Source of the DNA: Paracyclopina nana
Lineage: Eukaryota; Arthropoda; Copepoda; Cyclopoida; Cyclopettidae
Direction of reading: 5' to 3'
Assembly (NCBI GenBank): GCA_019096065.1
Contig: JAGUCH010000002.1
Span: 12,722,501-12,786,500, forward strand
Length of the DNA stretch: 64,000 bases
Shown: piece after piece, positions 19,467-64,000 of the stretch
Position numbering within the stretch: the first letter of the stretch is position 1
How the letters are laid out: every line of letters starts with the position of its first letter
Program-made: the position numbers and the translations under genes
The notes under the pieces: generated by a model
Told to the model about the DNA's origin: nothing
What the model saw: the letters and a program-made list of their open reading frames with translations, nothing else
Database searches by the model: none

Positions 19467-19468
19467 TA

Positions 19469-19686
19469 AGGTCCTTTCCATGTGCTCACTTTTGGTTTTG
19501 AGGTACAAAAAAATGTACCACGCAAAACCGTTTTTGCAAGACCGTTTTCATTGTTTATTTACGTTTTTGTTTACTTTTTGCGTACTGACTGTTTACTTTT
19601 TTTTGCTACTTGACCAAGACCAATTTTTTGTACCACCAAAAACCGTTTTTGAGATTTGTTTTTTGTACAAGCACATGGAAAGGTCC
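19469..19686. mobile_element. MITE-like element, copy 2 of a tandem pair
   Basis: Identical base for base to copy 1 by inspection, at a period of exactly 220 bp, sharing the intervening TA and followed by a third TA. Such a tandem arises by insertion at the TA of a resident copy, by unequal exchange, or from an assembly duplication. Confidence 0.6.
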
Positions 19687-42036: not shown

Positions 42037-42498
42037 CCTTGCATTTGAGCGTAAGAAACTATAGAGGGAGCTCATTTCCGGCATTTCAGAAAATTCCTCC
42101 GCTGATCATAGGCCCCTGAATGCAGCACCTTTTCCTACAACTTTTATACAAAAACTGATGATATTGTAACATAAAACCAAAATATGAGCTATCATTTGAA
42201 GACATTTACAAAATGTTCCTGATTTCAGAGAATCTTCTCTTTGCTACAAACATAGTTCCGATGGATATTGAGTTCTTGGGTCAATATGTGATGGGCAATA
42301 AGTACATCATGTCTCTGGTGCACGTTACGACCAGAATAGGACTTGATTGGACCCCTCCAGTGGAACCTGTGGAAACCGTGGAGCCCGTGGAGCCGCCAGA
42401 AGTCCGGAAGGTTGCCCATTCACCGCTACATCACCATCTCAAAATCACAAAACCTCCCTTCTCAAAAAACACCTTTTCATCTCCTCCAACTCTCTGAT

Positions 42499-42519
42499 TG
42501 TTGCTGCTGCTGCTGCTAC
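42499..42519 (+). repeat. Short GCT/TGC microsatellite
   Basis: TTGTTGCTGCTGCTGCTGCT-type triplet run, about 20 bp. Confidence 0.6.
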
Positions 42520-44150: not shown

Positions 44151-44237
44151 TATAATACCATAAGTGAGTGTACCTGTGCGTGTGTGTGTGTGTGTTTTGT
44201 CTTGGCCGCTCATAGCCTTGACAAAAAATCAAATAAA
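44151..44237 (+). promoter_or_regulatory. Putative retroelement promoter and poly(A) signal
   Basis: TATAATA at 44151-44157, followed by a (GT)n run at about 44175-44194 and AATAAA at 44232-44237, about 310-225 nt before the gag ATG. TATA then AATAAA in this order and spacing is what an LTR U3/R region looks like, which would put the transcript start near 44180. Without the partner LTR this remains an inference. Confidence 0.4.
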
Positions 44238-44332
44238 CGAGCTTAGCAATTGCAACCTTTTTCTCTGTGTCACTTGACGCGGCGTAGTAACTAGGACAAG
44301 CTTCCCTGTGCTTTGAACAGCGTATAGCTCTC

Positions 44333-44374
44333 AATTCGGTACTGCCGAATTTAGTACACACAGTAGTGTACTAA
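44333..44374 (+). other. Two abutting perfect hairpins in the gag leader
   Basis: Hairpin 1 (44333-44351) is AATTCGG, loop TACTG, CCGAATT, a perfect 7-bp stem. Hairpin 2 (44351-44374) is TTAGTACAC, loop ACAGTA, GTGTACTAA, a perfect 9-bp stem. They share base 44351. The position in the untranslated leader of a retroelement suggests dimerisation, packaging or priming functions, by analogy with retroviral leaders; this is inference. Confidence 0.55.
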
Positions 44375-44388
44375 GACCAGAATATTGC

Positions 44389-44461
44389 GTGTGACTCCGT
44401 TGCACCTCTAAGAGATAAGAAATACTCAGTGTGACTCCGTCACGCCTTTTACAAGATAAGA
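44389..44461 (+). repeat. Two-unit direct repeat immediately before gag
   Basis: GTGTGACTCCGT occurs at 44389-44400 and 44429-44440 (period 40). Each unit ends in AGATAAGAA, the second running into the gag start codon. The repeats may be leader RNA elements or a decayed duplication. Confidence 0.55.
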
Positions 44462-47026
44462 ATGGCAAATCAGGATTCTAGGATCGCTGGACCTACTCTG
44501 GCTGAGGAAGTTACGAAAGTAAAGGATCGATTGTTGCAACATCTTGGGATTAGTGAGGACACTTTTCAAGGGTACTTATCCCAATGCCACCCAAATGGGA
44601 CCAGCAGGACTGTCTTGCAAAGATTTCTGCCACACGTTGCTTACCCTGAAGCACTAGAGTTTGTTACGGTAACCCCAGCACAAATAGCAGCTGTCTGGGA
44701 TAGGACTCGGATAGTAATTGTTCCTAGGGAGCCAATTAGACCGTTGGATGATCATATTACGGCAATCATTAGGACTATGCCTCTTAAAGATCCAGTAGGC
44801 CAGGTTGTAAATGTGGTTAAATATATTGATGCACTTGACCCTAATTCATTGACAAGCACGACCTGTGCTTTATTATGCATTTGTTTTGGTCTGGATGAGT
44901 TCCTAACTCGTATTGAGGAAAAGAAAGATCTGCAGCGTATCCAAGAAGTTGATGGAAGCTCCATGACCTACGCAATGTCAGGGACGCATGAAATGGTTGC
45001 GACATTGATATCCAGGAATTGGCTAAAGATACGGGCATTTGGAGATGGATTTTCCATTGTAGCGAGGCTTTATGGCCTACAAATCGATTATTTCCTAAAT
45101 GAGCCGCTTAACCTGAAGCCACAGAAAACTTCAGGCCAGAGTGTACATTTTCCAAACAATGAGACGAGTAATGCTGTTCCAGATATGTCTTCGATAGCAA
45201 GTCCACCTGGGACTAACCATCATGAGTTCACTACAGGTGTTGATCTGAATGGCCAAAATAAGTCAGTCCTAACCTCGACTAAAATGAATCCTCGTGATTT
45301 GCACAACTTGACTAATTCTGTCACGCTTCCTCCAATGGAAGTTGTACATAGGATGGTACAAAAGATGTTGTCAGGAGGCCATTTGAATATTCAGGAATTG
45401 AACACGGTAAAAGCTTACTACACGAAAATGCATGATGCAAGCACGGCAAATAAAATCATTGCCTCTGCACAAATCACGGCTAAGCACATGGTTGGGGCAA
45501 AAGTAGAGTCTATCTTCAGTAAGAATTTAGAAAGAACCTTAAGCATAGTAGATGCTGCGACGAAGGAAAGAATGGTGCCGGAAACTGACGTCATCTACGA
45601 TGAGTCTGCTCCGATTTCAGAGAGGCTGAAGTTAATTAACACCGACGAGATTAAGGATGTGGAATCAGCCAGACGAGTAATCCTTCAGATGGTTGACCCA
45701 AACTTATCCTCAGGAAAGAAATTGATTGAGATGCAGAAGCTCTTTAGTGTACTTAGCACGAGGGACGAGTTTACTTCTCTCCAAAAGCAGATATTGGCAG
45801 AGGGCTACTTGAAGACCCCTGAAATAAGTGTGGCCGCTGGAGTATCAGCTGACACTTCTAGGAGCATTTATGATCCGACTACCATGAGAGGTTACATCGC
45901 TGCACCTACGAATGGCCATGTTAAGTATGCAAGCTCACAGTCAATGAAGGAGATTAGGCACAAATATACTAAAAAGTTTGATTTACATAGTTCTTCATTA
46001 ACTGCTGAGAATATAATAAATTTTCTGGACTATATGGCGAACGAGGCTGGCAGACAGCATTGGTCTCATGCAGCCTTGTTAACAGCCATGTGTGAGGCTT
46101 CATCCCAGAATACTAGTGAGTATTTTAAGGGGATGGCTGGAGAAGGAAAAGATGGTATGGAACTGCTGTGGCAAGATATCTTCAATTACACTCAGTTTGT
46201 GCGTAAAGAGGATCCGTACTTCCTCATTCAGGAGATGATCCGGAAGCCTACTGAGTGCTTTACTGCCACACTTAAGGCAATTCTTCGACTACGAATGAAG
46301 ATACATAGCACAACCATTGGAGATGGCGGAGATGCTCATGCAGTCTCTGAAGCCATCTCTGATGGTTTTGCACTCCTAGGACGTCATTGGCCTCAGAATT
46401 ACCAGTCGTTAGTAAACAAATACAACGACTATCTGCTGAGAGCGAATATACCTGCTAGGAGTTTGCACGCCTACAATATCATGATGAACCTAATTGGTAG
46501 TGACCTAGGTACTTATGTGCCAAGGGACCTGGATAGGGCTCATAAAGAGGAGAGGCTGCCAATGGTACCCAATATGCGTGCCAAACCTAGAATTGCTATG
46601 GTTGAAGCTACTGAAGAAGAGGTGTTAGACAGTGCTAGCACTATGTCGGCAGCCTCTGGCCGTAGTCAACGAAGTGCTAAAATAATAAATGAGCTACAAA
46701 GCGAGTTGGCTCGAGCAAATTTTGAATTGAGTAGGCAAGCTGTTGAAGTAGCTATGATGAAAGCTGAATCACCATCCGAGAAAATAAATAGGCTGGGAAA
46801 AACTTTTAACATAGATACATCTAAGTTGCCTGAAGGAAACCCTCTTCAGACTAATGGGTGCTTGTTCTGCAACCAATTGCATTACGCTACACAGTGTACG
46901 AATTACCCGAACACGAATTTGACCTCAATTAGAAACGATGGCACATTGTGCCCGTTGTGTAAAGGATTGCACCTTGAGTTTAGGGGAGAACAGTGTTGGA
47001 AGACACGACCTGCTCGTAAACAATAA
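44462..47026 (+). CDS. gag: Retroelement Gag polyprotein, 854 aa
   Basis: An uninterrupted frame from ATG 44462 to TAA 47024-47026. It is much longer than usual LTR-element Gags (about 300-500 aa). The C-terminus has two zinc-knuckle-like motifs: CLFCNQLHYATQC (C-x2-C-x3-H-x4-C, about residues 800-812) and CPLCKGLH...C (C-x2-C-x3-H-x7-C). The first resembles the spacing in BEL/Pao Gags rather than the retroviral C-x2-C-x4-H-x4-C. Upstream regions are largely helical with a Ser-rich linker (about residues 215-280). A predicted coiled segment lies near 735-765. Gag would form the particle and bind genomic RNA. The stop codon overlaps the pol ATG by one base (TAATG). Confidence 0.88.
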   Translation: MANQDSRIAGPTLAEEVTKVKDRLLQHLGISEDTFQGYLSQCHPNGTSRTVLQRFLPHVAYPEALEFVTVTPAQIAAVWDRTRIVIVPREPIRPLDDHITAIIRTMPLKDPVGQVVNVVKYIDALDPNSLTSTTCALLCICFGLDEFLTRIEEKKDLQRIQEVDGSSMTYAMSGTHEMVATLISRNWLKIRAFGDGFSIVARLYGLQIDYFLNEPLNLKPQKTSGQSVHFPNNETSNAVPDMSSIASPPGTNHHEFTTGVDLNGQNKSVLTSTKMNPRDLHNLTNSVTLPPMEVVHRMVQKMLSGGHLNIQELNTVKAYYTKMHDASTANKIIASAQITAKHMVGAKVESIFSKNLERTLSIVDAATKERMVPETDVIYDESAPISERLKLINTDEIKDVESARRVILQMVDPNLSSGKKLIEMQKLFSVLSTRDEFTSLQKQILAEGYLKTPEISVAAGVSADTSRSIYDPTTMRGYIAAPTNGHVKYASSQSMKEIRHKYTKKFDLHSSSLTAENIINFLDYMANEAGRQHWSHAALLTAMCEASSQNTSEYFKGMAGEGKDGMELLWQDIFNYTQFVRKEDPYFLIQEMIRKPTECFTATLKAILRLRMKIHSTTIGDGGDAHAVSEAISDGFALLGRHWPQNYQSLVNKYNDYLLRANIPARSLHAYNIMMNLIGSDLGTYVPRDLDRAHKEERLPMVPNMRAKPRIAMVEATEEEVLDSASTMSAASGRSQRSAKIINELQSELARANFELSRQAVEVAMMKAESPSEKINRLGKTFNIDTSKLPEGNPLQTNGCLFCNQLHYATQCTNYPNTNLTSIRNDGTLCPLCKGLHLEFRGEQCWKTRPARKQ

Positions 47027-50000
47027 TGGGACCAAGTACAAAAACTCCCAATAAGAATGATAAAGATAGTTACATCTTGCCTTCATTTATGAGGGGAGAA
47101 TGTAACAAAGAAGTAGGACGAGCTTACTTTGATTATTTAAAGGAGCAATCTGTGAAAAATGCCGAAATTATGACTCGTGGAAGTGAGGACAAAAAGGCTC
47201 TGGTCCTTGCAATAAGGGGTAGAAAAAGTCGGTTTGTCCATCAGCATACTATGACTGTAATTGAGATTAGCATAATACTGTTTGCAATAACAATATGTCA
47301 ATATTGCTTATTTGGTTGGGATTATTGGCCAATTACAGTAATCTGTAGTGGAGCAATAATAGCTTTATGGTACTACTTTGTAAAAGGTAGCACGAGTGAT
47401 GAGCAAAAAACTTGTAGTAATGATGGTATCGTTACACATCTGGCATCGGTAAATGCTAATGAAGCAGAGCCAGTAACACATTTTGAACCTTTACCGAATC
47501 CGGAACTTGAAGATGACATGCTGAGTATATACTCATTAAAGCTACACAATGTTTGCGAAAGGTATTTTATACCAGTGGAGATAACTGGAAAAATACGTTT
47601 GCATGCTTTATTTGACAGTGGAGCAATGGTGCAGATAATATCACGCACCCTTGTAAAACTGATCGAAGACAAGATTGGCTACACTCTACCTCGAGTTGAA
47701 ACTAATTATGTAATTAAGAACTTCAATGGAGAAGAATTCCCAGGGAATGAAGCTGTCTCTATTCAAGTTGCATTTGGAAATCGTGTTTTAATCAGACAGG
47801 CTGTCTTCCTTGTATCTGATTGTGATACACTATTAATGATAGGAAACTCGTTATTAGTGGACAACAATGTCCGGATGACTAGTAAAGATGGAAAGCACTT
47901 TATGGATTTCCCTGGAAAATCTAAACATAAGAAAATTCCACTCTTACTATCAAAAGAGGCTTTCTACCCAGTGGCAATAAATGAAGGGATCACTCTGCTC
48001 CCTGGAGAAGAAGTGACCACCATGGCTAGTTTACCTCATGATTTACCTGTCATCAGTAATGACATTCAAATAGATTCTGACTCTGACGAAGATGACGACC
48101 TTGGTCGTACTCATCACCAGAGAAATGTTTATTCCGGATTGGTGGATAAGTACTTAAACTTTATGCCTAGTAACGAGTACCGCGGAGTGACCTCTGAGGG
48201 GGCACTTACTGCAGTCACTCGTAAAGGTACTTTCCCAGTAAATATTGGGAATAATACTGAGGATCCCATCTACTTAAATGCACATGCAGTGATTGGGCGA
48301 GCCAGGATTGTCAAGAAACAGAAATTTAAGAGTACGGTTGCAGCCCATGTGGCTAACATTAGTTTAAAGGCCCTGGAGCATGAAATGGAGTCATGTTACT
48401 GCAATTATTTGGATTCGCACGTAATTGTGCAGTTTACGGATATAAATGGTCTTTCTTTTACTGATATGCATTTTTTCAATGCCTATGAGCCATTAAGGGG
48501 AAGCCACAAGCCCTTGATTAGTAGAAAAGGAAATTACGTATTTATCTCAGCTAACCAAAGTGATGGTTACGAAGAGATAACTGATGTGATAATTAGCAAA
48601 TTTATGAAACGAGAAAAATGGGATGAATTACCGTGGGCTGTTATTGTCCCAGGGCATAAACTTTTGTCTGGCGAACAAAAGCGCATTGTAATAAAGATGA
48701 ATATGATGGTGGATAAACTCAAAGTAGTATGGCTAAAATATAAGTATATTTGCCCACCATGCATGACCATTGCCTTGTGTCCTATTGAATCCTACCTCAA
48801 TGGGATGGATAGGGTCATAATAACTATGATGATACATGAGTATGAGAATTACCCCCTTGCTTATCAAAGAAATGAACTAGATAAGTATTTTGAACTAAAT
48901 GTTCTTGGAGCTCATGGTATCATGTTTAAGTTGTCCAACAATGTTGAGTTAATATTCCATGTCCCTAGCGAACATGCTGAGAATATTGGCTACTTAACCA
49001 CGCTTATGTACATAATAATTGGTCAATTACGGTACCAAAATGTGGCCGACGACGTGTGGATCAGAACACTTATGGATGGCGATGTGCATGTAGGTGACCC
49101 ACTTTGTATGGCAACCACCGCTGCATTGCTAGTGTTATCTGGGTTACAAATGTACCCTGATGACCTTACCAAAGAGGATATAAAGACAAAATTTGGTAAA
49201 TTTATACCATTTGTACTTGAACCACATGGTTGCTCGTGCAAGCCTTGCTTGGCAAAGAACATGGGCATCAAAGTGCCACTTAAGAGCTTCACTACTATTT
49301 ACGAAGGTCCTATTGTGGATACCAGTGTCAGACAAACAGTTCTAAAAAGTCCTTCTGAACTAGACCTCGTATCAGCTAGCCTGGAGCTTTCTAAAGATGA
49401 GAGAAATAACCAAAAACTATATGATGAGGTTTATAATCTCCTTTTGAAATTTCCAAGTGAATTTGACCCTCGCCGTGTTTTAAATGGAGTAGCAGGTTAT
49501 ACATTTCCATTGAAACCAGAAACGATCCTGAACATGGATCTAGAACACATTCCGGATGAGGTCAGAGAAGACTTTAGGGACCTCTTAATAGAATATAAGA
49601 CTATATTCTCGGAGGATCCTAGATCATATAGGCTATGGAATGTCGAACCCATGAAGTTCCAGTTAAAGGATGATAAACCATTAGTGCCAAAAGTATTTAA
49701 CATGTCGGAGTATGAAACTACGCAGGTTGACCGTAAAATAGCATTAATGCTGTCATCTGGATTAATTGAAATTGTGGATAAGTCACTTAATAGGTACTCG
49801 GCTTGCCCTTGTTTCTTGACTTCAAGGCCAAATGATGAAAAGCTGCCTATGAAGCAACGCAAGCCTCGGCTACTAGTTGACTTAACATCTTTTAATAAAA
49901 ATCTGATATTTACGACTTCGGAGCACATAGTGCCACCTATCCCTACCTTGCTAGGGATGTTATCTAATTCGTGTTTAATGTCATCTTTCGATGTAACATC

Positions 50001-53000
50001 CGGATACGATAACTTACCTGTGGACTCTGATAGTGCTGATATGTGCTGCTTTGCAGTAACGTCCCCTCGCAGTATATATAGATCAGTCTTTCTGAAAAGT
50101 AAGTCATGCCTACAAGGGATCGCCATTGCTCCGAGAATGTTCGCAGAGCTCCTCCAACAGGCCCTTAACCCTGAGATATTGCCCTTTACATGTGTATATG
50201 TAGACGATTTGGTTGTGGCCTGTAAGAACCCTGGCAAGCCTAGGCCTGCTACATTGGATGATTACATACGACATTTAGGTGATCTGAGGAAGTTGTTTCA
50301 AAGCCTCAAGGACTTAAATGCCCTATTACAAATTAAAAAGACACAATTAGGAGTTAAAGAAGCTACAGTCTTAGGGCACCTAATATCTATTGACGAAAAT
50401 GGGATTATGACTATGCGAATGCCCGATAAATTCAGGTCTGCATTTGATGATTTCCCTATTCCCACAACCAAGAAACAGCTGCAAAAGTTTATTGGAATGA
50501 CAAACTGGTTAAGCCAGTACTGTCCTAATATGGCTACATACACAGCTCCACTGCTAGATGTATTACAAACAGCGCAAGGGAAAACAGGAAAGTTCACCTT
50601 CACTGCTTTCCAAGAAAAATGTTTCTATAAAGTAATAGACGAGATTAAAACAGGTATGTCACTGGCATTGCCACGTTTTAAAGAAGGTTATTTAGTGGTT
50701 GATTCTGGGGTAATTAGCACCTCAGCTTTATTAATGGAGGTGAATGAGGATGGTAAAGCTGTGTGTGTTGGTGCACACAGCGCACGCTTTCCTTTATCAG
50801 TTTGCCTCTCGTACCACTCGTTTCAGCGTGAAGCATTAGGAGTTTTAACAATGATAAACCATTTTAAAAGCATACTATTCGCCTATGAGCGACTAGTCAT
50901 AGTTACGGATTGTCTATCAATAGCCAGCGTGCTGGCTAGTTCATTTACTGGTAAAGATGCTTTCACTCATAGACTAGCAGCTCGTATTTATTCCCTGCCT
51001 GTAGCATGGAAATTGAGAGCTGTACCTCGCACAGAGGTAGAAGTAGTTGATGTATTATTAAATAAGTACCATCAAACGCCAGAAGGTGAAACTGTATTTT
51101 ATGCGCCCTACTCTATTGCGGGGCAGATTACGAAGGATATTTATGCAAATAAGTACCCTCTGCCCGATGCAATCAAAGATAAGGTGCTAACGACACAGGA
51201 ATTACTTACACATGTGTATGATACACTTGTGAATTCTGGAACTATGAGTAAGACTCTACTCCAGAAAAGGTTGCATTGCCTAAATGACAAATGGGTTGAC
51301 ATGATCGGCACGAAGCCGCCATTTGTGCACGACGACACGTCAACCTTACTTCAAGCAAAACATGATGATGATGAATTTCTTGAGGACGAGATACTTTCAA
51401 AACTATCTCATTCGTTTCATGGGGAAGCTGATTTTGACTCACCAGTAAATCATATAGAAAATAACTTAAGAGTAGATACAGTAACTGTTAAACGGCGAAT
51501 ATCGCCACATTTACCAGGAATTACACGCAACCTACTCATTAAGTTGCAACAAAATTGTGAAGAAACACAAAAGATAATAAATCTAATTATGCTTTCGCCT
51601 CCAGAGAAAGTACCACTAGATGTTGCGGTAAAATATCGTGTCCTTGACGGTGCCCTGTTGGTCATTCGCAAGAATGTAAAGCTACCTTTTAGCGTTGCGA
51701 CCAATACGAAAGTATATATGAGTATGCCCAACTGTGTGTACCTGATGGCATGTATTCATTTGCTACATAACCATTTGGGAAGTAAAAAGACTAATACTCT
51801 TTTTACCCAATCTATGTATTCAACTTACTCAGCCAGAATCAGTCGTATTATTATTGGTGCGTGCATGCATTGTGCTTTATACCGCCAAGCTAATACTAGG
51901 TTTGTTGGGAAGGGGCGTTTCCGCATCCCGACTCAGCCATGGGAATTGGTAATGATTGATTTGGCCAAGTTCGATGACACTTTAGTCAAAGGGTCTTCCG
52001 CAAAAGACCTGTTAGTATTTGTCGATGTTTATTCTAAGATGATAATTGCTAAACCACTATTGGATGCTAAATATAAGCAGGTAGCGAATGCTATGGAAGA
52101 AGTAATTTCTTTGTTTGGGGTGCCAAAAACATTACTTGCAGATAATGGTGCCCAGCTAACGACTAATAAGGCCCTCCAACGCCTTGTTGATCGTTATAAA
52201 ATTAAGGAGTTATGTCATTACCAAACTTTATCGCCATACAAGCATTCGAACGCTTACGCTGAAAATGCTATACGAATAATAAGGAGTGCATTAGTCCTAA
52301 ACTCTAACTCATACAATATGAGGTTATGCGATGTGTTTAAGACTTCTATTTACGCAATAAATAATCGCCCTCTTACTTATTTGGCATATACTGATGATAA
52401 AGGGGTGAAGATCACCCCCACACCTTTTTCGTTATTTTTCGATAAAATGCCGTTCTATCATTTAGGACGGGATGTATTTGAAATACTTAGTGAAAGCGAG
52501 GACAAAATTCATAAAGCCGAATGGCGTCAACGCATGCGTGAATATGATCTAGAAGAACAGTTCCACTTAGAAAAAATGAAGGCTACTGAAAGACCTTCCT
52601 TTAAACCAGAGATTGGATCATTAGTGTTAGTTATAAAACATCCCATAAATAAACAACGGTATAAATTTATGGATGATTTGTTTGAAGTTATTGACATTGG
52701 ACAGCATTCAACTGTGACTGTAAAGCCGTATCTTTATGATGGGCTTACTCGTGAAGTAAGCTTAGATCATGTAAAGTTATACCGATTCCACGAACTATAT
52801 AGATTTCTTCCGGAAAAGTTGTCCAACCTCTTGAAACGACCTTACACTCCGGAAGAAATTCTACGTAAAAAAGCAAGGAATGAGGTTATTGAATTTCTTG
52901 AAGGGGCAGCCCCTGAAAGTCATGATTATAGTTTGCGGGGTCACACAAAGGCCTCTAGTATAGTGGCCTCGCAAAGTTCATTGATTTCACAGTCCACATC

Positions 53001-55011: not shown

Positions 55012-57038
55012 CTTTTAAGAAGTTTAAATAGAGATTCGTAAGAAAGGACGTGATGACGGTAACCTTAGTGCCCATATTTTATGGGGTCACTACCTTTACT
55101 TTGTCAGTCCAATATGGGCGCACCGTTTTACCAATCAAGCGCACCCAAAAGTAAGTTAATGCAAAATGTCGATTGCGGACCTGAATTTGGCCACTTGCCA
55201 AAAAGATCATAGAAATGGATACGAACGGGCAATGTCTCTTCACATGCCCGCCAGTAAGGTACAATATGCATAAAGGTGATAAGTTGCTGAACAGTACATT
55301 GACAGCAAGAAAACAACTAACGAAACATACTCTCTGCAGTTCGTTAGCGGTTCTAGAAGTATGTATAAAAATGATGGAAGCCACAAGGCACTGGATTTGG
55401 ACTTCCTCCAGGGATTGTTCAATCCAACAACAAACCAAACCTCGCTTGCTTTGACAAAATAAATGAAGTTTGCGTAGGTTATTTTTACAATATTGATGGG
55501 ACAAATAATTTTGTCCTGTTTCCTGACAAATACCGATGCAAATCAAAATTTGACCGGTACTTACGTGTGCTTGCCCCTTACTACTATAGTAGGAGGCCAA
55601 GCTTACAATAGACGATAGGCCGATTGGCCTGAATAAAGTTAACTATTATATAAGTTATATAAAGTAAAGTACTATAAACACGCCATGCAAGAGGGAAGTT
55701 GCAGATGGGCGTAATGCCCCATCTGAATAGCTATGTGTTGAAAACTATGGTTAAAGCTCCACTGAGCTATGTCCAAATGAAACCGCTATCCACTCCATGC
55801 CTCGCGTGGGTTGATAGCTACTAGGACATTCGTACCTTAGTACAGCAAAAGTTGGCACTAGGCACTGTGCAAGTGGGACACAATAAACCTCACAATACGC
55901 ATGAGGGCTTGTGTTGGCCGCATTACTATATAAAATCTTGGAACGATATTGAAAACTTCCAGAAGAAATTAGGAAAATGCACAACCTCTGAGATGAGGAT
56001 TGGGCATCGATAAAAAAGGACGATTATAAATCACACATGTTCTGGCATGGAAACGATACCACAGTAGTATATGCCATAAAACAAAAACTCTGTTGCAACG
56101 ACTACTGTGCCTATAATATCAGAGTGTCTCGACCATGACCTGGTTGCATAACGCAGGTCTAGGCGTGACGCCTCCGGACTTTGAGTAGGATGGAACATGG
56201 AAATCTGTACAAAAATGGGATTCATCTCCCTAAGAAGGGATCTTGAAATACTAAGTACAGCTTTGTGCCTGGGCGAATAATCAGCCCAAACTATGGTCTT
56301 CATGCCTCAACAAAATGTAGGGACCCACTCACTATTGGAATGGGCCGCTCCCTTGTGGCCACTAAAGACAACGAAAATCCTATATGCTGGTGAATTCTTC
56401 AGCTTTGGATACAACTGGGGTATTTTGGGGGTTGAACAAGTGTTTCCCCATAAAATACCATTTTAAGTTCGATTGCCACAACAGTCTATGTGTGACAACT
56501 AAACTTGTTTTGGAAATCGTAATTCTAAATAAAAATAAAATTTAGTGTGTGCCGACCTTCCTTCCTTACGGTGGCACGATTTAGGTTTGTGATATCATGT
56601 ATGGTGCCCATGGGCGCCATATTTCAAATAAAATTGAATAAAATTAGCCTAGCTGATAAATCTTTTATAGTAAAAGATTCGAAAACATACTTACCTGAAT
56701 TTTGTGTGACTGCTCACTGCAGTTCCCACAAAATGCAGAAAATTGTGGAGGGGGGAGTATATATACGTAGCCGCAGGAAATGCAGCCTGCGCCCCAAAAA
56801 TTTCACAAAATTTGAGCGCCCTCGTGCTCTGAGAAAGTATTGTAAACAAAATTTCTAGAAAAAACTGGATATGGCAAATGGCTACAAAAACTATAAACCT
56901 GAACACTAGCACATAAATGTCGCAAAATCTGCTTCATATATTATTATTAGTGCTAACCGAAATTAGCTGAAAAGATCGGTGCTGACAACCTCAATCTTTT
57001 AAATTAATTTCGGTTATGAGCACCCGAACTTGATGCAC

Positions 57039-57070
57039 GCATCAAGACCGAGCTGGAATGCAGAGCTATA
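57039..57070 (+). repeat. Dispersed motif CAAGnCCGAGCTGGAATGC, copy 1
   Basis: GCATCAAG-A-CCGAGCTGGAATGCAG-A-GCTATA. It matches copy 3 at 30 of 32 positions. The motif contains short self-complementary parts (GCAT/ATGC; CTG/CAG). Confidence 0.6.
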
Positions 57071-57916
57071 ATAGCTATGCAAGTCAGTGATAACAGATAA
57101 AACATAATCTATGAGTCTGTTTAAAATGGCTAGACAAAAAACATTTGAGCAAGATAGACTGAAATGTGAGTTGCATTGCGCAAAGACGCTGAGCCAGCTT
57201 TTGTCGAACAGATACCCGACTCCAAGGGGGGCAAAAAGTTGTTATGGAACAAAAATCCAGAGACGCTCCCACACTAGAAAAATCCAGTTTGAGCGGCTTC
57301 GCTTGGAGATGTAGAATGGTGGCGCCACCATGCGCCTAACCACGAACCAAAAACGTTTTGCCCAAGGCTAAAACGAACAATGAAGATTGGAACCGCCGGT
57401 GCACCTACAATTCACCTGGGAAGGTTTTTGAACCTAACTAAACTCGAAAATGGCCATACTTGGCTCGAGTGGTGACTCAAATTCCGGGATTTATTATGCG
57501 GGTACAAGGAATAAAATAAAACGTTGCATAAAAGTCAAGAGAATGAAAATGACTAATGTTATAATGATACCGCTAATGATCGCCAGATGGACTAACAGAA
57601 GAAAAGGTTCAAAGTGCACAAAGATTAGGCATATTGTTAAATAAAAGAAGTGCTGAAATGTGGCTATCTTGCAGTCGCCACATGAATCCCCTCTCTTTTG
57701 GTGGAGAATTCAATTTACGCTAAACACAGCACTAGCAAAACAAGCTAGGTCAGCACACATTGTAGACTGACATGTGAGAAAATGAAAAATACACGTCTTC
57801 TAGCCTGATATGGAAAAGAATATTGTGCCATTGCCTAGTGCTTGAGCTTGCTTTTGCTATGTGCAATGACATACGGCCGGTTTTCCAGTCCTGTAGGGAC
57901 TACGTTTCCCTCGCCG

Positions 57917-57939
57917 CACTCAAGGCCGAGCCGGAATGC
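57917..57939 (+). repeat. Dispersed motif, copy 2
   Basis: CAAGGCCGAGCCGGAATGC, preceded by CACT; the 19-nt core differs from copy 1 at two positions. Confidence 0.55.
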
Positions 57940-58029
57940 CCAAGGAAAAAAGGATGCCAAATTGGCATTGGTAGCCCATAAGCACCAACGCTTGGCCGGT
58001 AGTAATCGCAGACACTCAAATATGGTGCT

Positions 58030-58061
58030 GCATCAAGCCCGAGCTGGAATGCAGGGCTATA
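58030..58061 (+). repeat. Dispersed motif, copy 3
   Basis: GCATCAAG-C-CCGAGCTGGAATGCAG-G-GCTATA, nearly identical to copy 1 about 990 bp upstream. Confidence 0.6.
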
Positions 58062-58100
58062 GTGAACGCTTTTCTTGAACATTGAAGCATCGTTTGCAGT

Positions 58101-58134
58101 GTCAAGGCCGTCAAGGTCGAGCTGGAATGCTAGC
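58101..58134 (+). repeat. Dispersed motif, copy 4
   Basis: TCAAGGTCGAGCTGGAATGC, directly preceded by an extra partial repeat TCAAGGCCG, 40 nt after copy 3. Confidence 0.55.
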
Positions 58135-58412
58135 TTATTTACAGGCCCGAATCTGTGGATTTGGGCCGCTAATGATTCGCTAATGATTAATTATGCAATT
58201 AAAATGCAATTCTTGACACCTGAGATATGGTCTACGGTCCTTTTGGCCATGAAATGTAAAAAATTGGACTCGAAATGTGCTTGGCTATGATAATGAACTG
58301 CTGAACTTGACTAGAAAGGTGCTGAGCTTCATAAGGCTGAGCTATCTGCTGAGGTAAACGCGAAATGAGTTGCGGTAAACACAGTAGACACAAAAGTACA
58401 ATGAACGTGGAC

Positions 58413-58418
58413 TTTATT
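58413..58418 (-). other. Poly(A) signal of gene Y
   Basis: AATAAA on the minus strand, about 160 nt beyond the stop codon of the minus-strand membrane-protein gene Y, after a possible 3'-UTR intron (donor at 58580, TAGTAAGT; acceptor TTTTGCAG near 58520). Confidence 0.6.
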
Positions 58419-58580
58419 GTCCCAATGGGAGGCCTCCTGGCGAGGGGGGCGGGCTGGCCTTGGGCCACGTTGGGGCCAGCCCTGGCCGGTGCGGTGGCCT
58501 ACCGATAACGAGACGATTTCTGCAAAAGATAAGGCGAATATAGTGAAGCTGTGATAGCTTAAATGAATAAGTTAGACTTA

Positions 58581-59117
58581 CTAGACGACTCCTTCGAGGG
58601 GGTCCTCCTCCCCCACAAACAGGTGGAGGACCCAGGCCGAGACCCTGGGCAGGTCGGTGGGCTCGTCCCACACCCGGCTGACGAGCCGATACAGGGCCCT
58701 GGGCCTGGCCCGGTGGACCCAGGCGAGGGCGGGCAGGGCCACCAAATAATAGGTGGCCGCCCCTGCCACGTTCAGGGCCACGCCCTAGAGGATCTCTTCG
58801 GCCTGCAATACGAGAAAAAAGTCGAGCTTTGACCAAATAGATAACGAATAATGCACTTACGAAGCCCTGAACGGGGCAGGGAGGGCACGCCTCCTGATGG
58901 CCCAAAGGGGCTGCGGGCGGGGCCGCAGGTGGCTGGGGCCACCCCGCCGCGGACTCGGCCGCGGGGGGCGCCCCTACGGGAGCCTCAGTGGCGGGGGCCA
59001 CTGTTGTGGTAGAAGGATTCTACATTCCCAATGAAAAAGATACAGTTTTACGAAAGGATTCAACGGATTTTAATCGAAATAAAAACTTACGAACAAGCCG
59101 TGAAGGAAGCCCGCCAT
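58581..59117 (-). CDS. Gene Y: small single-pass membrane protein, 129 aa
   Basis: Three minus-strand exons, 59117-59091 (9 codons), 59019-58861 and 58784-58581, with introns of 71 and 76 bp. The last junction uses the acceptor CCTCTAG at 58785. An AG 18 nt upstream (TTGCAG) would also splice but brings that TAG into frame as a stop after six codons. The product has a short hydrophobic N-terminus, a Thr/Pro/Ala-rich ectodomain-like stretch with an ACPPCP motif, a hydrophobic segment of about 20 residues, and an Arg-rich then acidic tail. Exons are exceptionally GC rich (long GGC/CCC runs) between AT-rich introns. No family recognised. An upstream in-frame TAA fixes the start. Same strand and layout as gene X. 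Confidence 0.55.
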
Positions 59118-59292
59118 GTTTTGGACTTTTTAGTAAACAAGGCACGCTACCAGAAAAATCCGGTCTGAAATCGGCCAAATTTTACGTGAAAAAGCCTCTT
59201 TTTATTACGCGCCTCTACGTGAAGTCTGGGAGCGCTGTTAGATGAAGGTAACGGCTTCGCTAATACCTGCTACCCCACTTGAATTCGAATTC

Positions 59293-59298
59293 TTTATT
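59293..59298 (-). other. Poly(A) signal of gene X
   Basis: AATAAA on the minus strand, about 320 nt past the gene X stop codon; the 59299-59619 interval is its AT-rich 3' UTR. Confidence 0.6.
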
Positions 59299-59619
59299 AC
59301 ATATATATAGAATACAAGTACTATAGTATATACTCGAGTATATTGGAAGCTAAAAGTATATTGGAAGCTTTGAGATCAAAATAAAAACAAGACGAGTGCA
59401 ATTGCCAAAAGCCGGCTTTGAAGTCTGCAAGTCTGCGAGGCCTCGAAAAGTTTGCGAGATCTCGAAAAAGTGGAAAAGTCCGCGAAGACTGCGGGAAATG
59501 CAAGTTATAAAGTGAGAATTCGCACGCGATAAGAAGGACAAAGTGCTAAAGTTACAGAAAACGCGCTTAAAAACGTGCGAAAAGAGAGCGATCTTCGTCT
59601 CGCAAGTTCGTGGCGATCC

Positions 59620-60674
59620 TTAGTTGGCATCGCTGTTGACGTCTTGGGAAGCCTTTGATCCAGCTGAATCCTGGTCCTCATCTGCGATGGAGAGAGGTTC
59701 AGCCTCAGTGATTTCGTCCTTGTCCGGGATGGACTCCGCTGCCGAATCCAAGCGACGGTTATCTCGGGCTCGAGCCCGGCGAGATCGTCTCTTCAAAGTC
59801 CGCGGCCCGCACCCTTCAGTAACAGGTACCTGAAAAGGTGCATGAAAAAGAGTACATGAGCAACCTGTTTACAGTTCATAAATTGATAGGTCCTTACCCA
59901 GCCCTTGGGATTAGGGACGTCATAGATGTGGGCCAGCCCGGACATGATGCTGGGATTCCGGCGTAGTGTTCCATAGGGGTCCATGGCAGCCATTGCCATT
60001 TGGAGCGAATGGACATCAGGGTCACGCATAATCGGGGCTGGTGGCAAAGCTCGGACCTCTGGGGTACAGCAGTGAAATACCGCTGCATGCTCTGATGGGG
60101 CCTTTGTTGGAAGCATTTGCATGGCTTCCCCACTGGCAGCCGCTGATTCCGTACGGATAGCTCGAAACGTGGCCACGAACCTTCGGCACCATCGTGACGT
60201 CCACACGCAGAAGTACACCAACATGCCAAGCAAAATCTGTAAGAAAGAAGGTGGTAAATAAAAGTTTGGCCATAGTTGCAAAACTAGTTATAAGGTTGAA
60301 CTTACCAAAGCCATCCCAATGGACGCTCCAAGACCGATCCATCCCATTACACCGTATCGGTGGTAATTGAAAACCTCATCGATCCAGTCCCTCTGAGGGG
60401 CAATGGGACGATAACCATTTGGTACCGCTGGCATTAAATCTCGGGGGTCAAACACCTCCACTTCAAAGGGGTCGACAGGAGCTGGGCCAAATCCAGGTCC
60501 ACCCTCGGCTTCAGAAATGCCACTCTCAGGAATAGCAACAGTAGGACCTACTGGGCCCGTGGTTTGAGAATCCACTAGCGCAGGACCCACCGTTGATGGC
60601 TGGATTGGAACCTCAGTGGGAGCCTCTGTAGAGCTGCCCTCTGGAGTTAGAGAAACCCAGGCTAAAATGACCAT
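59620..60674 (-). CDS. Gene X: single-pass membrane protein, 305 aa
   Basis: Three minus-strand exons, 60674-60306, 60236-59898 and 59829-59620, with introns of 69 and 68 bp, phase 0 at both junctions. A short hydrophobic start (MVILAWVSL) may be a signal peptide. About 95 residues rich in Thr, Pro, Glu and Gly follow. A long hydrophobic stretch (about residues 107-136) is assembled across the first splice junction and followed by positive charges (SRWCRRF), giving a cytoplasmic tail of about 165 residues. The tail has a basic cluster (LKRRSRRARARDNRR) and an acidic Ser-rich end. No homologue recognised. The architecture of a short ectodomain, one TM and a long tail resembles viral accessory or envelope-type membrane proteins, but this is only an analogy. 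Divergent from gene P. Confidence 0.65.
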
Positions 60675-60863
60675 CGCGAGTTGATTAGGATTGGAATATC
60701 TCTAGAAAAGTGACCAGCTTGGACGAAGTCCGATGGGAGAATGATCAACATTAAGTGAAAGCTGAGAGTTGCAACTGCCTGTTGCACCCTCGCTACGTTT
60801 CTCGACCTAGGAAGTCAAAAATGTCCGTGCAACTCGACGATGAGCGTGCGCGCACGCGCCCAT

Positions 60864-60869
60864 CTTATA
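60864..60869 (-). promoter_or_regulatory. TATA-like element of gene X
   Basis: TATAAG on the minus strand, 190 nt upstream of the gene X start codon, next to a CG-rich alternating stretch (GCGCGTGCGCGCACGC). Together with the TATA box at 60998 it makes a bidirectional promoter of about 130 bp. Confidence 0.45.
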
Positions 60870-60997
60870 AGGAAGTGGTATAAGTCCTGTTACCTTGTTC
60901 TTTTTTACCTAGACAAAAATTGACCTTGGTTTTTTAAAAAAGGGACAACCCACGCATTTAAATGCCCGAGAGTGTGGGGCATACCTGTAAAGATGCG

Positions 60998-61005
60998 TAT
61001 AAAAA
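60998..61005 (+). promoter_or_regulatory. TATA box of gene P
   Basis: TATAAAAA, 42 nt upstream of ATG 61040. It lies inside the frame opened by an upstream ATG at 60962, so that upstream ATG is probably not transcribed and the start at 61040 is preferred. Confidence 0.55.
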
Positions 61006-61039
61006 GGGCAGTTTACGGCCCTACAGCAACAGTCTGGAA

Positions 61040-62332
61040 ATGAGCGATAGCTTGAATAGCCTCGATAACCTAAGGATGTCTCTGATCACCGAAGCCATGG
61101 AAGGAGAATCTGCATTGGTCTCCATGATGGAGACTGATAAGACTGGAGAGTTCAACGAGCATGAGGTTAGTGAGCTCCTAAAGGATGATGAGCCAGTTAT
61201 GGATCGCAACATGCCTGCTGTCAATACTGAGAACCAAGCCCTAAATCAGACGACTAGACACCAGGACCAAGAGGAACCCCTCGAGGTCCCATTGGAAAGG
61301 GTATCCTCCAGTTTGGGGTACCCATTGCCATTTGAGGATTTGATCAGGCCTCCCCACATGGAGGGCCTACAGGCCTATGCGAGGGAGGCGAGCCGGACCA
61401 GAGCTACTATACAGCAGCATTATGATGCAAGCCTGTTGAAGATAGCTACGAAAGAGGTCATGACTGTTGGAAAGGAGGTGCCTTTTGACCTAACGATCAG
61501 GATAAATGGAGAACCCTATGAACGGACCGAGCCTCGTAGGCCATTGAAGGTGAAAAACTTTGACTGCATTGAATTGATTATCGAGCCAGTGAGTAAAGGA
61601 GGGGAGATTCCCGATTTTCTTGTTATATTTCCGATGCTAGACAATCTACCAGTCTACAACTTGCCTGACAAGATGGAATATGACGAGAATGTCCATAAGT
61701 TGGCCAATGTCAGGAGTTGGTCTGCCGTCCAGAGCCCAACAGCTGTTGGGTATTATGTGCATGGAATCCGTGGACAGGGTGGAGCACCTGTAGTAGTCTC
61801 CAAACATTATACCAAGCGAGGCTGCATTCAGATCATGCCAACATTGGACTCATCATTTTGGGATCCGCGGATGTTCCATGATTTGACGTCGCCTTACGTG
61901 CAACTGTATGTGGGACCGCCGTCCTGCCTTAACAATGGCGTGGCTCAAGCACCACGAAAATTGGACGTGAAGATCGATATGACCGCACTCCTGCCTACCA
62001 TGGTAGCCCAGTTTGTCGATCGAGCCATTGGGACATATCCGCAATGCGTGAGGTACACAGCCGGGGCCAGGCCCCAAAAACTAGCCGCGTTTGTGGAGAA
62101 GTCTTGGCAACAAAAACCAAGGCGAGGACCTAGACTGTACGCCGATGTAGCGCGCGGGCGCCCTGTTGGCGCAGGAACGAATGGACCAGACATTTTGCAC
62201 GCTAAGCGCTCCAAAGTCGATAAGAATAAGGAGCGTGTGAACTATCTCCTCCAGGCTAAAATGGAGGAAATGACCCCCAGCGACATCAAGGTATTCACTG
62301 AGGCGATTAATGGATTTGTCGGGCAGTTCTAA
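61040..62332 (+). CDS. Gene P: unrecognised 430-aa protein, possibly structural
   Basis: One exon. An in-frame ATG at 60962 would add 26 residues but sits upstream of the TATA box. The N-terminal 90 residues are acidic and probably disordered. The centre (about 110-350) alternates hydrophobic and charged residues in the manner of a beta-rich domain (for example FDCIELIIEPV, SPYVQLYVGPPS, LDVKIDMTALL). The C-terminus is basic (QQKPRRGPRLYADVARGR, then AKRSKVDKNKER) and ends in a short helix. There is no membrane segment, signal peptide or catalytic motif. A beta domain with a basic tail would fit a capsid or nucleic-acid-binding protein, but no family is recognised. AATAAA at 62436-62441 ends the transcript. 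Confidence 0.65.
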   Translation: MSDSLNSLDNLRMSLITEAMEGESALVSMMETDKTGEFNEHEVSELLKDDEPVMDRNMPAVNTENQALNQTTRHQDQEEPLEVPLERVSSSLGYPLPFEDLIRPPHMEGLQAYAREASRTRATIQQHYDASLLKIATKEVMTVGKEVPFDLTIRINGEPYERTEPRRPLKVKNFDCIELIIEPVSKGGEIPDFLVIFPMLDNLPVYNLPDKMEYDENVHKLANVRSWSAVQSPTAVGYYVHGIRGQGGAPVVVSKHYTKRGCIQIMPTLDSSFWDPRMFHDLTSPYVQLYVGPPSCLNNGVAQAPRKLDVKIDMTALLPTMVAQFVDRAIGTYPQCVRYTAGARPQKLAAFVEKSWQQKPRRGPRLYADVARGRPVGAGTNGPDILHAKRSKVDKNKERVNYLLQAKMEEMTPSDIKVFTEAINGFVGQF

Positions 62333-62435
62333 AAAATGAAATTACCCTTCAGAATCGAATTGTACATATTGATAAAATACTTGGTTGTGGGCCAATACTC
62401 TTAACTTTTTACCATACATGTCGACATGCTATGAT

Positions 62436-62441
62436 AATAAA
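62436..62441 (+). other. Poly(A) signal of gene P
   Basis: AATAAA about 100 nt after the gene P stop codon and 70 nt before the TATA-like element of gene G. Confidence 0.55.
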
Positions 62442-62507
62442 AACCAATGGAAAAAAGCAAAGAATGTCTAGACATAGTGAGGTGGCGTGCCCATACTTGT
62501 CTGGGTT

Positions 62508-62513
62508 TATAAG
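62508..62513 (+). promoter_or_regulatory. TATA-like element of gene G
   Basis: TATAAG (GTTTATAAGG context), 62 nt upstream of the gene G ATG; a transcript start near 62540 would give a leader of about 30 nt. Confidence 0.45.
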
Positions 62514-62569
62514 GAAAGTTAGCGGTCTTGGGGCCCAAATAGTTTCTGATCAGAGTTTGTGCTGGTAAG

Positions 62570-64000
62570 ATGTCGTTTGAATTGGCCTTCATACTCACCC
62601 TTTTGGGATCTGGCACTTGGGGCCTGTCCAACTACCCAAATACTCAGTTCGTACTGGATGAGGCACTTTGCCATTCCGGACATGCCCTAGTTCCAGTTAG
62701 AGTGGTCCATCATCCTAGAATGGTGAAAAAGGCTATGGTGTTAGATACGAAGGATTACAGTGGCCTTTTGCAATCAACAATTGGCGTCCTGAATAATATT
62801 GACACCGTGGTAAAAGAAGTTAAGGACAAGGAGGACTTGGTCCATATTGGGAATATGTTGGCAGTTGGAGAAGAGAGTACCCCTAACACCATCGACAAAG
62901 CTTGTTCCAAACGTCAAGGGTTTGTACCATTTGCCCCTAAAACTTATGAAGACATGGACGTTTTTCTAGAACTATTACGTTATACGGCAAAGGAAAGCCC
63001 TCTTGCCACTAAGGTAACTTTATGTGTAAAGTTTCGGATCGTCAATGAGGTACCTATGTCCTTGGATGGGAAAACCACATTTCCTCAAGTGGGGTATGAG
63101 AAAAAACCGGATGATGAGATAATTGCAGGTTACCCGTGTATCACGGTGTATTTCACTGTGGGACAAGGGCCGAGGACCATGACGTCAGTTAAAGCCCATG
63201 CACCACACAGTGATGGGAAGGCAACAATATGTGTTCAAAATGACTTTGTCATCACCCATAAGGACTTTGTCAAATCTGAATTGTCTGGGAGGAAAAGCTT
63301 CCTTGAAAAGGCCTACAACGCCGTGATGGCCCTAGCAGAATCAGGTAAATCGACAAAATTCACCGATGGCATGATAGCAAATACCACTCCACTGAGAGTA
63401 CCACCGAAAGTTTCTTTGGCCTTTCGACTACTGAAAGGTTTTAGCAAGGTATTTTTGAAGTCTGGATTATTACCAAATGATCTGCAGCAAGTATTGTCAT
63501 ATGCTGACACAGTTGTGCAATTTGCCAGAAATTTTGGGCAGGCAGGCACACGGTTCAGCTTACCAACTCTGGCGCATAATAGTGACAGAAATGCGGCCAC
63601 CATTACTAATGTTTATGAACCTTTGGCGAACACTGAGCAGAGTGGAGACTTTGTCACTCAGGGAATAGTTGGGTATAAAGAAATGGACCCTACCCCTGAG
63701 GTCACATATCATATTGTGTCACGAAGCAAAAACGGATTCTTACTGCATGATAGGTATTTGACCCGCCGAAATGATCTAGTGTTTGTGTCTCGGGAAATAC
63801 CCATCTATAGTGATTGCTTCGTTCATGACCATAATTTAACCGTGTGTGAAAACAAGGACTTTGACTTGACAGAAGGAGTCCAGCACTGTGCTAAAGTACT
63901 TTTAGGGCTAGCTCTGGGTGACCCTTTTGACGCCTGTGAATTAGAGCCACTTAAAACTAACACGCTCACTGATGTGGGATGTGCTAATTATAAAGGGTTC
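62570..64000 (+). CDS. Gene G: secreted or envelope-like protein (3' partial)
   Basis: Open from ATG 62570 to the last base (477 codons) with no stop, so the 3' end lies outside. The first 19 or so residues form a typical signal peptide (hydrophobic core, then small residues Gly-Leu-Ser). Ten Cys and two N-glycosylation sequons (NTT, NLT) are seen so far, consistent with a disulphide-bonded extracellular protein. No transmembrane segment appears yet; one could follow. Position last in the cluster, downstream of gag-pol on the same strand, is where retroviruses and errantiviruses carry env. The sequence does not resemble the baculovirus-F, phlebovirus or chuvirus glycoproteins known in arthropod elements as far as I can judge by eye. 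An unrelated secreted protein is possible. Confidence 0.65.
   Translation, partial: MSFELAFILTLLGSGTWGLSNYPNTQFVLDEALCHSGHALVPVRVVHHPRMVKKAMVLDTKDYSGLLQSTIGVLNNIDTVVKEVKDKEDLVHIGNMLAVGEESTPNTIDKACSKRQGFVPFAPKTYEDMDVFLELLRYTAKESPLATKVTLCVKFRIVNEVPMSLDGKTTFPQVGYEKKPDDEIIAGYPCITVYFTVGQGPRTMTSVKAHAPHSDGKATICVQNDFVITHKDFVKSELSGRKSFLEKAYNAVMALAESGKSTKFTDGMIANTTPLRVPPKVSLAFRLLKGFSKVFLKSGLLPNDLQQVLSYADTVVQFARNFGQAGTRFSLPTLAHNSDRNAATITNVYEPLANTEQSGDFVTQGIVGYKEMDPTPEVTYHIVSRSKNGFLLHDRYLTRRNDLVFVSREIPIYSDCFVHDHNLTVCENKDFDLTEGVQHCAKVLLGLALGDPFDACELEPLKTNTLTDVGCANYKGF

What the first reader, a model, noticed from the sequence alone, without database searches (positions are those of the whole stretch)
44151..64000. 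Possible giant ambisense retrovirus-like element
An intact Ty3/Gypsy-like gag-pol is followed by four unrecognised genes, two on each strand; X, P and G have TATA-like elements, X, Y and P have poly(A) signals, and X and Y have introns. LTR elements are normally expressed from one LTR promoter on one strand. Antisense spliced membrane-protein genes plus separately promoted sense genes would be a new layout. Seen: gene order, promoters, intact frames. Inferred: that they form one mobile unit.
Basis: partly seen in the sequence, partly recalled or inferred. Interest (0 to 1): 0.88.

Follow-up and report, generated by a model that had tools for sequence, protein, structure and literature searches.

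The report
Giant two-strand retrovirus-like mobile element
This is a 23-kilobase retrovirus-like mobile element, present in dozens of copies in an unnamed small animal genome, that carries extra genes on both strands, including two intron-containing membrane-protein genes running against the rest, a layout that would be new for an animal element of this kind.

Summary
A 927-bp repeat at 42289-43215 recurs with 100% identity just past the window's end, with TG..CA ends and a 4-bp target duplication TATG. The element is about 23.2 kb. Of 40 scored LTR matches in the genome, 34 form 17 pairs, 14 of them 22.1-22.6 kb apart. 51 of 53 gag matches have P and G downstream on the same strand. X lies antisense upstream of 76 of 78 G matches. 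The X(-) Y(-) P(+) G(+) order also holds in two deeper families, and Y and P in a third; G identity falls to 27%, yet an intron inside Y's membrane segment persists. X and Y evolve as genes in the antisense frames. A TATA box sits 61-62 bases before G in four lineages. G looks like an envelope; Y and X look like membrane proteins; P is unknown. G and P had no homologue in the protein search. Best reading: an envelope-bearing Ty3-like provirus with an ambisense cassette. Expression and infectivity are untested.

The parts
42285..42288 (.). left copy of the 4-bp target-site duplication TATG
   Evidence: TATG also follows the right LTR; another copy (C3) has TGCA on both sides
42289..43214 (+). 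5' LTR (TG..CA). Its identical partner lies outside the window at L009 560-1485, i.e. window-extended 64560-65485
   Evidence: blastn 927 bp 100%, ends read; 40 scored genome matches, 34 of them in 17 pairs
43218..43239 (+). primer-binding-site-like stretch starting TGG just after the LTR
   Evidence: sequence; a matching tRNA gene was not found with one exact pattern, so tentative
44462..47026 (+). gag, 854 aa, Cys/His-rich C-terminus
   Evidence: 54 matches genome-wide in a capped list
47026..55011 (+). pol, 2661 aa: protease, RT, RNase H, integrase, then a long C-terminal extension without a Pfam match
   Evidence: residues 1-1991; last 670 residues; RT closest to Ty3 among solved structures
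55012..58417 (.). about 3.4-kb spacer without a recognised gene; four dispersed 32-nt repeats and a 23-bp inverted repeat; one 173-aa minus-strand frame at 55079-55600 was not studied
58861..59117 (-). antisense gene X, exons 1 (59117-59091) and 2 (59019-58861); Pro/Ala-rich
   Evidence: GT and AG intron ends kept in 15 of 15 aligned rows
58581..58784 (-). antisense gene X, exon 3 with stop; weak membrane segment; AATAAA at 58418
   Evidence: dN/dS 0.12-0.28 in this frame against 0.72-2.34 in the other two; homologues antisense in families 2 and 3
60306..60674 (-). antisense gene Y, exon 1: Pro/Thr/Ser-rich ectodomain and first half of the membrane segment
59898..60236 (-). antisense gene Y, exon 2: second half of the membrane segment and tail
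59620..59829 (-). antisense gene Y, exon 3: basic C-terminus; AATAAA at 59298 and 59206
   Evidence: intron ends kept in 15 of 15 rows
60864..60869 (-). TATA-like box about 195 bases upstream of Y, in the divergent Y/P promoter region
   Evidence: unchanged in the 13 family-1 copies aligned, not in the more distant L041
60962..62332 (+). sense gene P, 456-aa frame (likely start ATG 61040)
   Evidence: dN/dS 0.07 against L038 and L039
60998..61006 (+). TATA-like box of P, inside its longest frame
   Evidence: overlaps codons YKKG
62508..62513 (+). TATA box of G
   Evidence: 61-62 bases before the first ATG of G in families 1, 1b, 2 and 3 (counted from the ATG)
62570..64000 (+). sense gene G, envelope-like: signal-peptide-like N-terminus and ectodomain; continues past the window, where this copy's frame is broken; other copies have an intact frame with a C-terminal membrane segment
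   Evidence: dN/dS 0.12-0.13 in four comparisons

Best explanation
The element is a recently active, giant (about 23.2 kb) Ty3-like LTR provirus bearing an envelope-like gene and an ambisense accessory cassette. Shown by sequence: two identical LTRs with a 4-bp target duplication, gag-pol, and a cassette of X and Y (minus strand, spliced) and P and G (plus strand, unspliced) that travels with gag-pol in dozens of copies and keeps strand, order and a Y intron position in deeper families. Inferred: the 5' LTR drives the full-length sense RNA, which is both gag-pol message and packaged genome. From the integrated DNA, internal promoters drive P and G on the sense strand and Y and X on the antisense strand. 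The antisense introns persist because the reverse-transcribed genome is the sense RNA, in which antisense splice sites are not read; this predicts introns only in X and Y, which fits what is seen. G most likely acts as the envelope: signal-like N-terminus, 15 Cys, C-terminal membrane anchor, basic tail. Y (Pro/Thr/Ser-rich ectodomain) and X are accessory surface proteins. P is an internal structural or matrix-like protein; this role is the least certain.
For: LTR pair and target duplication (second copy 0 of 927 mismatches and TGCA). 34 of 40 LTR matches form 17 pairs, 14 of them 22.1-22.6 kb apart and 3 of them 28-30 kb. gag followed by P and G in 51 of 53. X antisense to 76 of 78 G matches. 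X antisense and G sense downstream of 13 and 14 of 14 family-2 RT matches, and 7 and 5 of 7 family-3 RT matches. Antisense Y with an intron inside the membrane segment in one copy each of families 2, 3 and 4 as in family 1. Codon constraint on all four genes. TATA 61-62 bases before G in four lineages. G pairwise identities 87, 65, 42 and 27%. RT nearest Ty3 among solved structures.
Against: No RNA, protein or particle data. G has no recognisable fusion-protein homologue; its single-sequence structure model is worthless (mean pLDDT 33), as is that of P. P's TATA overlaps codons and none was seen before P in family 3. The Y TATA is not kept in L041. Seven RT matches of a 64-66%-identical family gave no X or G by sequence search; 2.5 kb of one copy show antisense Y-like and sense P-like genes, but X and G were not within that stretch. 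In this window's copy G is broken; 4 of 15 Y rows (L030, L037, L042 lose the frame, L041 has an internal stop) and some X rows are damaged. X's membrane segment is weak (1.57).
Confidence: 0.75

Rival explanations
1. G, and perhaps P, are ordinary envelope-type genes expressed by splicing of the 5' LTR transcript; the internal TATA boxes are incidental and only X and Y are unusual.
For: This is how env is usually expressed in retroviruses and env-bearing Ty3 elements (general knowledge). P's TATA overlaps codons. No search for sense-strand splice sites was made, so this is not excluded.
Against: A TATA box 61-62 bases before the first ATG of G in four lineages whose G proteins are down to 27% identical.
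Confidence: 0.3
2. The cassette is a separate mobile element or DNA-virus fragment that inserted into a Ty3 element once and is only carried along.
For: Spliced, TATA-driven genes on both strands look more like a DNA virus or host segment than like LTR-element genes (inference).
Against: No inverted repeats of 40 bp or more in the window. The cassette is under purifying selection and is found with RTs only 51% identical, so even if captured it is now an integral part.
Confidence: 0.12
3. X and Y are open by chance (mirror frames or GC-rich stretches) and are not genes.
For: X is GC-rich and short, and a TAG lies between two possible acceptor sites. One Y comparison (L036, 21 changes) gave 0.53.
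Against: Y dN/dS 0.09-0.15 against the divergent copies and X exon 3 0.12-0.28 in the antisense frame. Read on the plus strand the same DNA gives 0.74-3.18 in two frames, and 0.20-0.62 only in the frame whose third positions coincide with those of the antisense codons, where 4-7 stop codons occur. Intron ends kept in 15 of 15 rows; same intron position in four families.
Confidence: 0.04
4. gag-pol and the downstream genes are unrelated neighbours and the LTR pair is coincidental.
For: None found.
Confidence: 0.01

Closest known systems
Plant Ty3 elements with antisense ORFs between pol and 3' LTR (Grande, RIRE2, Retand)
   Same: Antisense coding region in the same place; the Grande antisense gene is transcribed from its own promoter (PMC7264820, PMC11963269; abstracts and passages seen)
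   Different: Plant elements whose antisense proteins include a nuclear protein and TRP28-domain proteins; the word intron does not occur in either main text. Here two spliced membrane proteins plus two sense genes, in an animal
Burro giant Ty3-like elements of planarians
   Same: Animal, over 20 kb, extra domains, env-like part (PMC6431247, section 7 read)
   Different: Burro carries its extras, env-like part included, inside one very long sense polyprotein; here they are separate genes on both strands
Errantiviruses and other env-bearing animal Ty3 elements
   Same: Ty3-like pol with an env-like gene before the 3' LTR (general knowledge)
   Different: No match of G to a known env family; antisense genes; a TATA box before G
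Retroviruses with antisense genes (HTLV HBZ) and foamy viruses (internal promoter)
   Same: Antisense gene (HBZ, passages of PMC11963269); internal promoter for 3' genes (recalled)
   Different: Here a four-gene divergent cassette with antisense membrane proteins; HBZ is nuclear
Bdelloid rotifer LTR elements with captured ORF3
   Same: Extra ORFs shared among animal LTR elements (PMC5408684, start of abstract and passages)
   Different: In the passages seen, ORF3s are described as expressed from spliced messages; none mentioned antisense genes

Membership tests
Ty3/gypsy (Metaviridae) | pol order PR-RT-RNaseH-integrase | tested here: met
   (RT above its cut-off; integrase 31.8 bits, just under 32.6; protease and RNase H below cut-off)
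Ty3/gypsy (Metaviridae) | RT groups with Ty3 elements | tested here: inconclusive
   best solved-structure matches are two Ty3 chains (84.5 and 79 bits), then others at 56 bits or less; four database matches at 22-23% identity; no tree built
Ty3/gypsy (Metaviridae) | LTRs TG..CA with 4-6 bp target duplication | tested here: met
   two of two copies examined
Ty3/gypsy (Metaviridae) | tRNA primer-binding site | tested here: inconclusive
   TGG stretch after the LTR; tRNA not found with one exact pattern
Troyka | CG..CG termini and 3-bp target duplication (PMC12440569, abstract) | tested here: not met
   TG..CA and 4 bp
Retand-type plant elements | antisense ORF between pol and 3' LTR | tested here: met
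Retand-type plant elements | TRP28 domain (PF04195) in the antisense protein | tested here: not met
   no Pfam match at E 1 for X exons 2 and 3 and Y exons 2 and 3; the Y exon-1 frame had none either
Errantivirus | env related to baculovirus-type fusion protein | tested here: not met
   no relevant Pfam match for G in three families; only sequence profiles tested
Burro | extra domains and env-like part fused in one giant polyprotein | tested here: not met
   separate genes on both strands
Ambisense expression | messages from both strands | not testable with these tools
   no RNA data

The most novel reading that the evidence does not exclude
An animal lineage of ambisense retroviruses: genome RNA and gag-pol come from the LTR, while a four-gene divergent cassette, transcribed from proviral DNA, supplies the envelope from one strand and two spliced accessory surface proteins from the other. 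Because sense genome and antisense messages are complementary, the two programmes may exclude each other and give a built-in early/late or latent/productive switch.
Probability: 0.45. Interest if true: 0.9.

Novelty: new variant of a known kind. Interest (0 to 1): 0.82.

Why it matters
LTR elements are usually described as one-strand, one-promoter units. A lineage that keeps spliced genes on the antisense strand and a promoter-like box before its envelope-like gene shows how such an element can carry introns through reverse transcription. It raises the question of how it avoids making double-stranded RNA against itself. With dozens of near-identical copies in one animal genome, that question can be tested directly with strand-specific RNA.

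Tried and rejected
Homology of P and G: none at E 0.01 among scored candidates from about 5.8 billion proteins (for G only the 7997 candidates sharing most words were scored). No convincing Pfam match. No solved-structure match for P, and for G four matches at E 0.25-3.3, which I take as chance; P. For G 82 stretches of viral contigs matched a pattern and none was confirmed; P could not be searched there (one search failed). Nested-transposon idea: no inverted repeats of 40 bp or more in the window. tRNA primer: one exact pattern, no match. Host identity: a nematode-typical collagen family gave no match, but that call warns that nothing rang in its controls, so it only hints against a nematode; ORFs in the flanks look animal (recalled resemblance). 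The 64-66% RT family at first looked like one without the cassette; 2.5 kb of one copy showed Y-like and P-like genes, so absence by sequence search was rejected as evidence. In one search five runs meant to re-test Y found no target because of a strand mismatch in my script; the Y values quoted are. Against L041 the Y dS is saturated (3.2), and dS for P and G against L041 could not be computed.

Literature: searches listed no animal LTR element with spliced antisense genes that I recognised; I saw listings, starts of abstracts, and the passages or sections named; the library lacks most subscription papers. Searches did not run.

Full report
What was checked. The window is G000:C2:12722501-12786500 in a 92-Mb genome of 10 contigs. 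gag (44462-47026) and pol (47026-55011) are open. Pol matches a Ty3-type protease, RVT_1, RNase H and integrase families in the usual Ty3 order. I fetched 20 kb to the right. The longest match between the window and that stretch is a 927-bp repeat at 100% identity, window 42289-43215 and L009 560-1486; the only others are copies of a 220-bp repeat from 19.2-19.7 kb. The long repeat has TG and CA ends and is flanked by TATG on both outer sides. The element therefore spans about 23.2 kb, from 42289 to window-extended 65485, and includes all four unrecognised genes.

Other copies. The LTR gave 40 scored matches of 98-100% (a capped list). Of these 34 form 17 same-strand pairs, 14 of them 22.1-22.6 kb apart and three 28-30 kb; 6 are unpaired in that list. 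A second copy on C3 has 0 of 927 LTR differences and target duplication TGCA. gag gave 54 matches; of the 53 used (one short fragment was dropped, and two of the 53 are pieces of one copy), 51 have both P and G downstream on the same strand within 35 kb, mostly at about 16.4 and 18.1 kb. The two exceptions lack G, one of them also P. Six of the 57 P and six of the 56 G rows used there had no gag in the list. By my count 35 of 90 rows lie in a 637-aa open frame, one of them with a stop inside. In the window's own copy that frame is broken beyond the window; intact copies exist elsewhere.

Antisense genes. Y has three exons (60674-60306, 60236-59898, 59829-59620) and X three (59117-59091, 59019-58861, 58784-58581), with GT..AG introns of 68-76 nt. 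The GT and AG ends of all four introns are kept in 15 of 15 aligned rows. Y dN/dS against the divergent copies L038, L039 and L041 is 0.09, 0.15 and 0.13 (dS saturated for L041); against the closer copies L043, L032 and L036 it is 0.14, 0.08 and 0.53. X exon 3 gives 0.12-0.28 in the antisense frame against 0.72-2.34 in the two other frames, over six comparisons; X exons 1+2 give 0.00-0.39. P gives 0.07 and G 0.12 against L038 and L039; a spacer stretch gives 0.58-0.98. Three of 15 Y rows lose the frame and one has an internal stop; X is damaged in L041 and, in exon 2, in L038, as expected for a mobile family.

Y and X searched genome-wide. Y exon 2 gave 59 matches, all in family 1 or 1b: 58 are on the strand opposite to the nearest G and one is on the same strand as a neighbouring copy's G; 55 of 78 G rows have it within 14 kb upstream, and the 23 without it are nearly all families 2 and 3, where Y is too diverged for this query. 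X exon 3 gave 79 matches: 75 opposite, 1 same, 3 without a G within 20 kb. The 78 G rows used are those of the 90 that are not further fragments of a listed copy.

Deeper families. RT matches fall into identity classes: family 1 mostly 97-100% (damaged copies lower), one 93% locus (1b), family 2 at 75-87% (14 loci, partial ones included), a 64-66% class (7 loci, family 4), family 3 at 51% (7 loci), then 25-29%. X is antisense within 14 kb upstream of 76 of 78 G rows. Downstream of RT, X (antisense) and G (sense) were found in 13 and 14 of 14 family-2 loci, 7 and 5 of 7 family-3 loci, and 0 and 0 of 7 family-4 loci. The family-4 blank is at least partly a sensitivity limit: 2.5 kb of one copy (L049) show an antisense gene whose intron splits the membrane segment, and a sense P-like frame (both assigned by eye); X and G were not within that stretch. 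In family 2 (L040) Y is antisense with the same intron inside the membrane segment and X lies antisense just outside the fetched stretch. In family 3 (L048) X-like and Y-like frames are antisense, P and G sense, and the Y intron again splits the membrane segment. P is 42% and 25%, and G 42% and 27%, identical to family 1 in families 2 and 3. The layout therefore predates these families.

Promoters. Counted from the first ATG of G, a TATA box lies at -62, -62, -61 and -61 in families 1, 1b, 2 and 3 (in 1b and 2 the script counted from a point 3 and 21 bases before that ATG). P in family 1 has TATAAAAAG at 60998, which also encodes YKKG; family 2 has TATAAAAG just before its ATG; none was seen for P in family 3. 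Y and X have TATA-like boxes 190-215 bases upstream in the window; the Y box is unchanged in 13 family-1 copies but not in L041.

What the proteins look like. G: hydrophobic N-terminus, C-terminal membrane segment near residue 552 (628-aa frame of a family-1 copy in L040), 15 Cys, 3-4 N-glycosylation motifs, C-terminus ending in -TLV in families 1, 1b and 2. Y: Pro/Thr/Ser-rich ectodomain, one membrane segment (hydropathy 2.21; 3.21 in family 2), basic C-terminus. X: Pro/Ala-rich with a weak membrane segment (1.57). P: no strong hydrophobic stretch in family 1 (1.12), one of 1.83 in family 2. Neither P nor G had a detectable relative (G). Envelope and accessory roles are inferences from topology and position.

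How it most likely works. The LTR drives sense RNA for gag-pol and packaging. The four 3' genes are transcribed from integrated DNA by internal promoters, two on each strand. Introns on the antisense strand are not spliced out of the sense genome and so survive reverse transcription; the sense frames are uninterrupted, as seen. This explains the layout economically but rests on no RNA evidence.

Comparison with the literature. Plant Ty3 elements Grande, RIRE2 and Retand have antisense ORFs between pol and the 3' LTR, and the Grande gene has its own promoter (abstracts and passages of PMC7264820 and PMC11963269). Burro shows that animal Ty3 elements can exceed 20 kb with env-like parts, but in one sense polyprotein (PMC6431247, section 7). 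Troyka is excluded by termini and target duplication (PMC12440569, abstract and passages). No animal case of spliced antisense genes in an LTR element turned up in searches.

Noticed in passing
window 59620-60674 versus 56940-57839, copies L038 and L039: Synonymous divergence is far higher in Y (dS 1.0-1.6) than in P (0.5-0.7), G (0.3-0.5) or the spacer (about 0.1), which suggests that copies are mosaics formed by recombination within the cassette.
   Followed up: partly
family 2 loci (e.g. L040): RT is up to 87% identical to family 1 while G and P are only 42%: the cassette evolves much faster than pol or was exchanged.
   Followed up: no
window 58785-58802: 18 nt between two possible acceptor sites of X exon 3 end in an in-frame TAG and are identical in five of the six other copies printed (one synonymous change in L041); use of the first acceptor would give a short protein without membrane segment.
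   Followed up: partly
G C-terminus (L040, L041): The tail of G ends in -TLV in families 1, 1b and 2, resembling a PDZ-binding end (recalled motif).
   Followed up: no
window 57039-58139: Four dispersed copies of a 32-nt motif lie in the spacer between pol and X, and a 23-bp inverted repeat at 56954-57016.
   Followed up: no
window 19247-19686: A perfect 220-bp tandem duplication; the same repeat occurs inverted in L010 4392-4616.
   Followed up: no
window 54547-54627, minus: ARAGORN reports a tRNA-Asn inside the pol frame; probably spurious.
   Followed up: no
G000 C1:8752836 and C4:5379642: Two further RT loci with 2465-aa frames at 25% identity may be another giant Ty3-like family.
   Followed up: no
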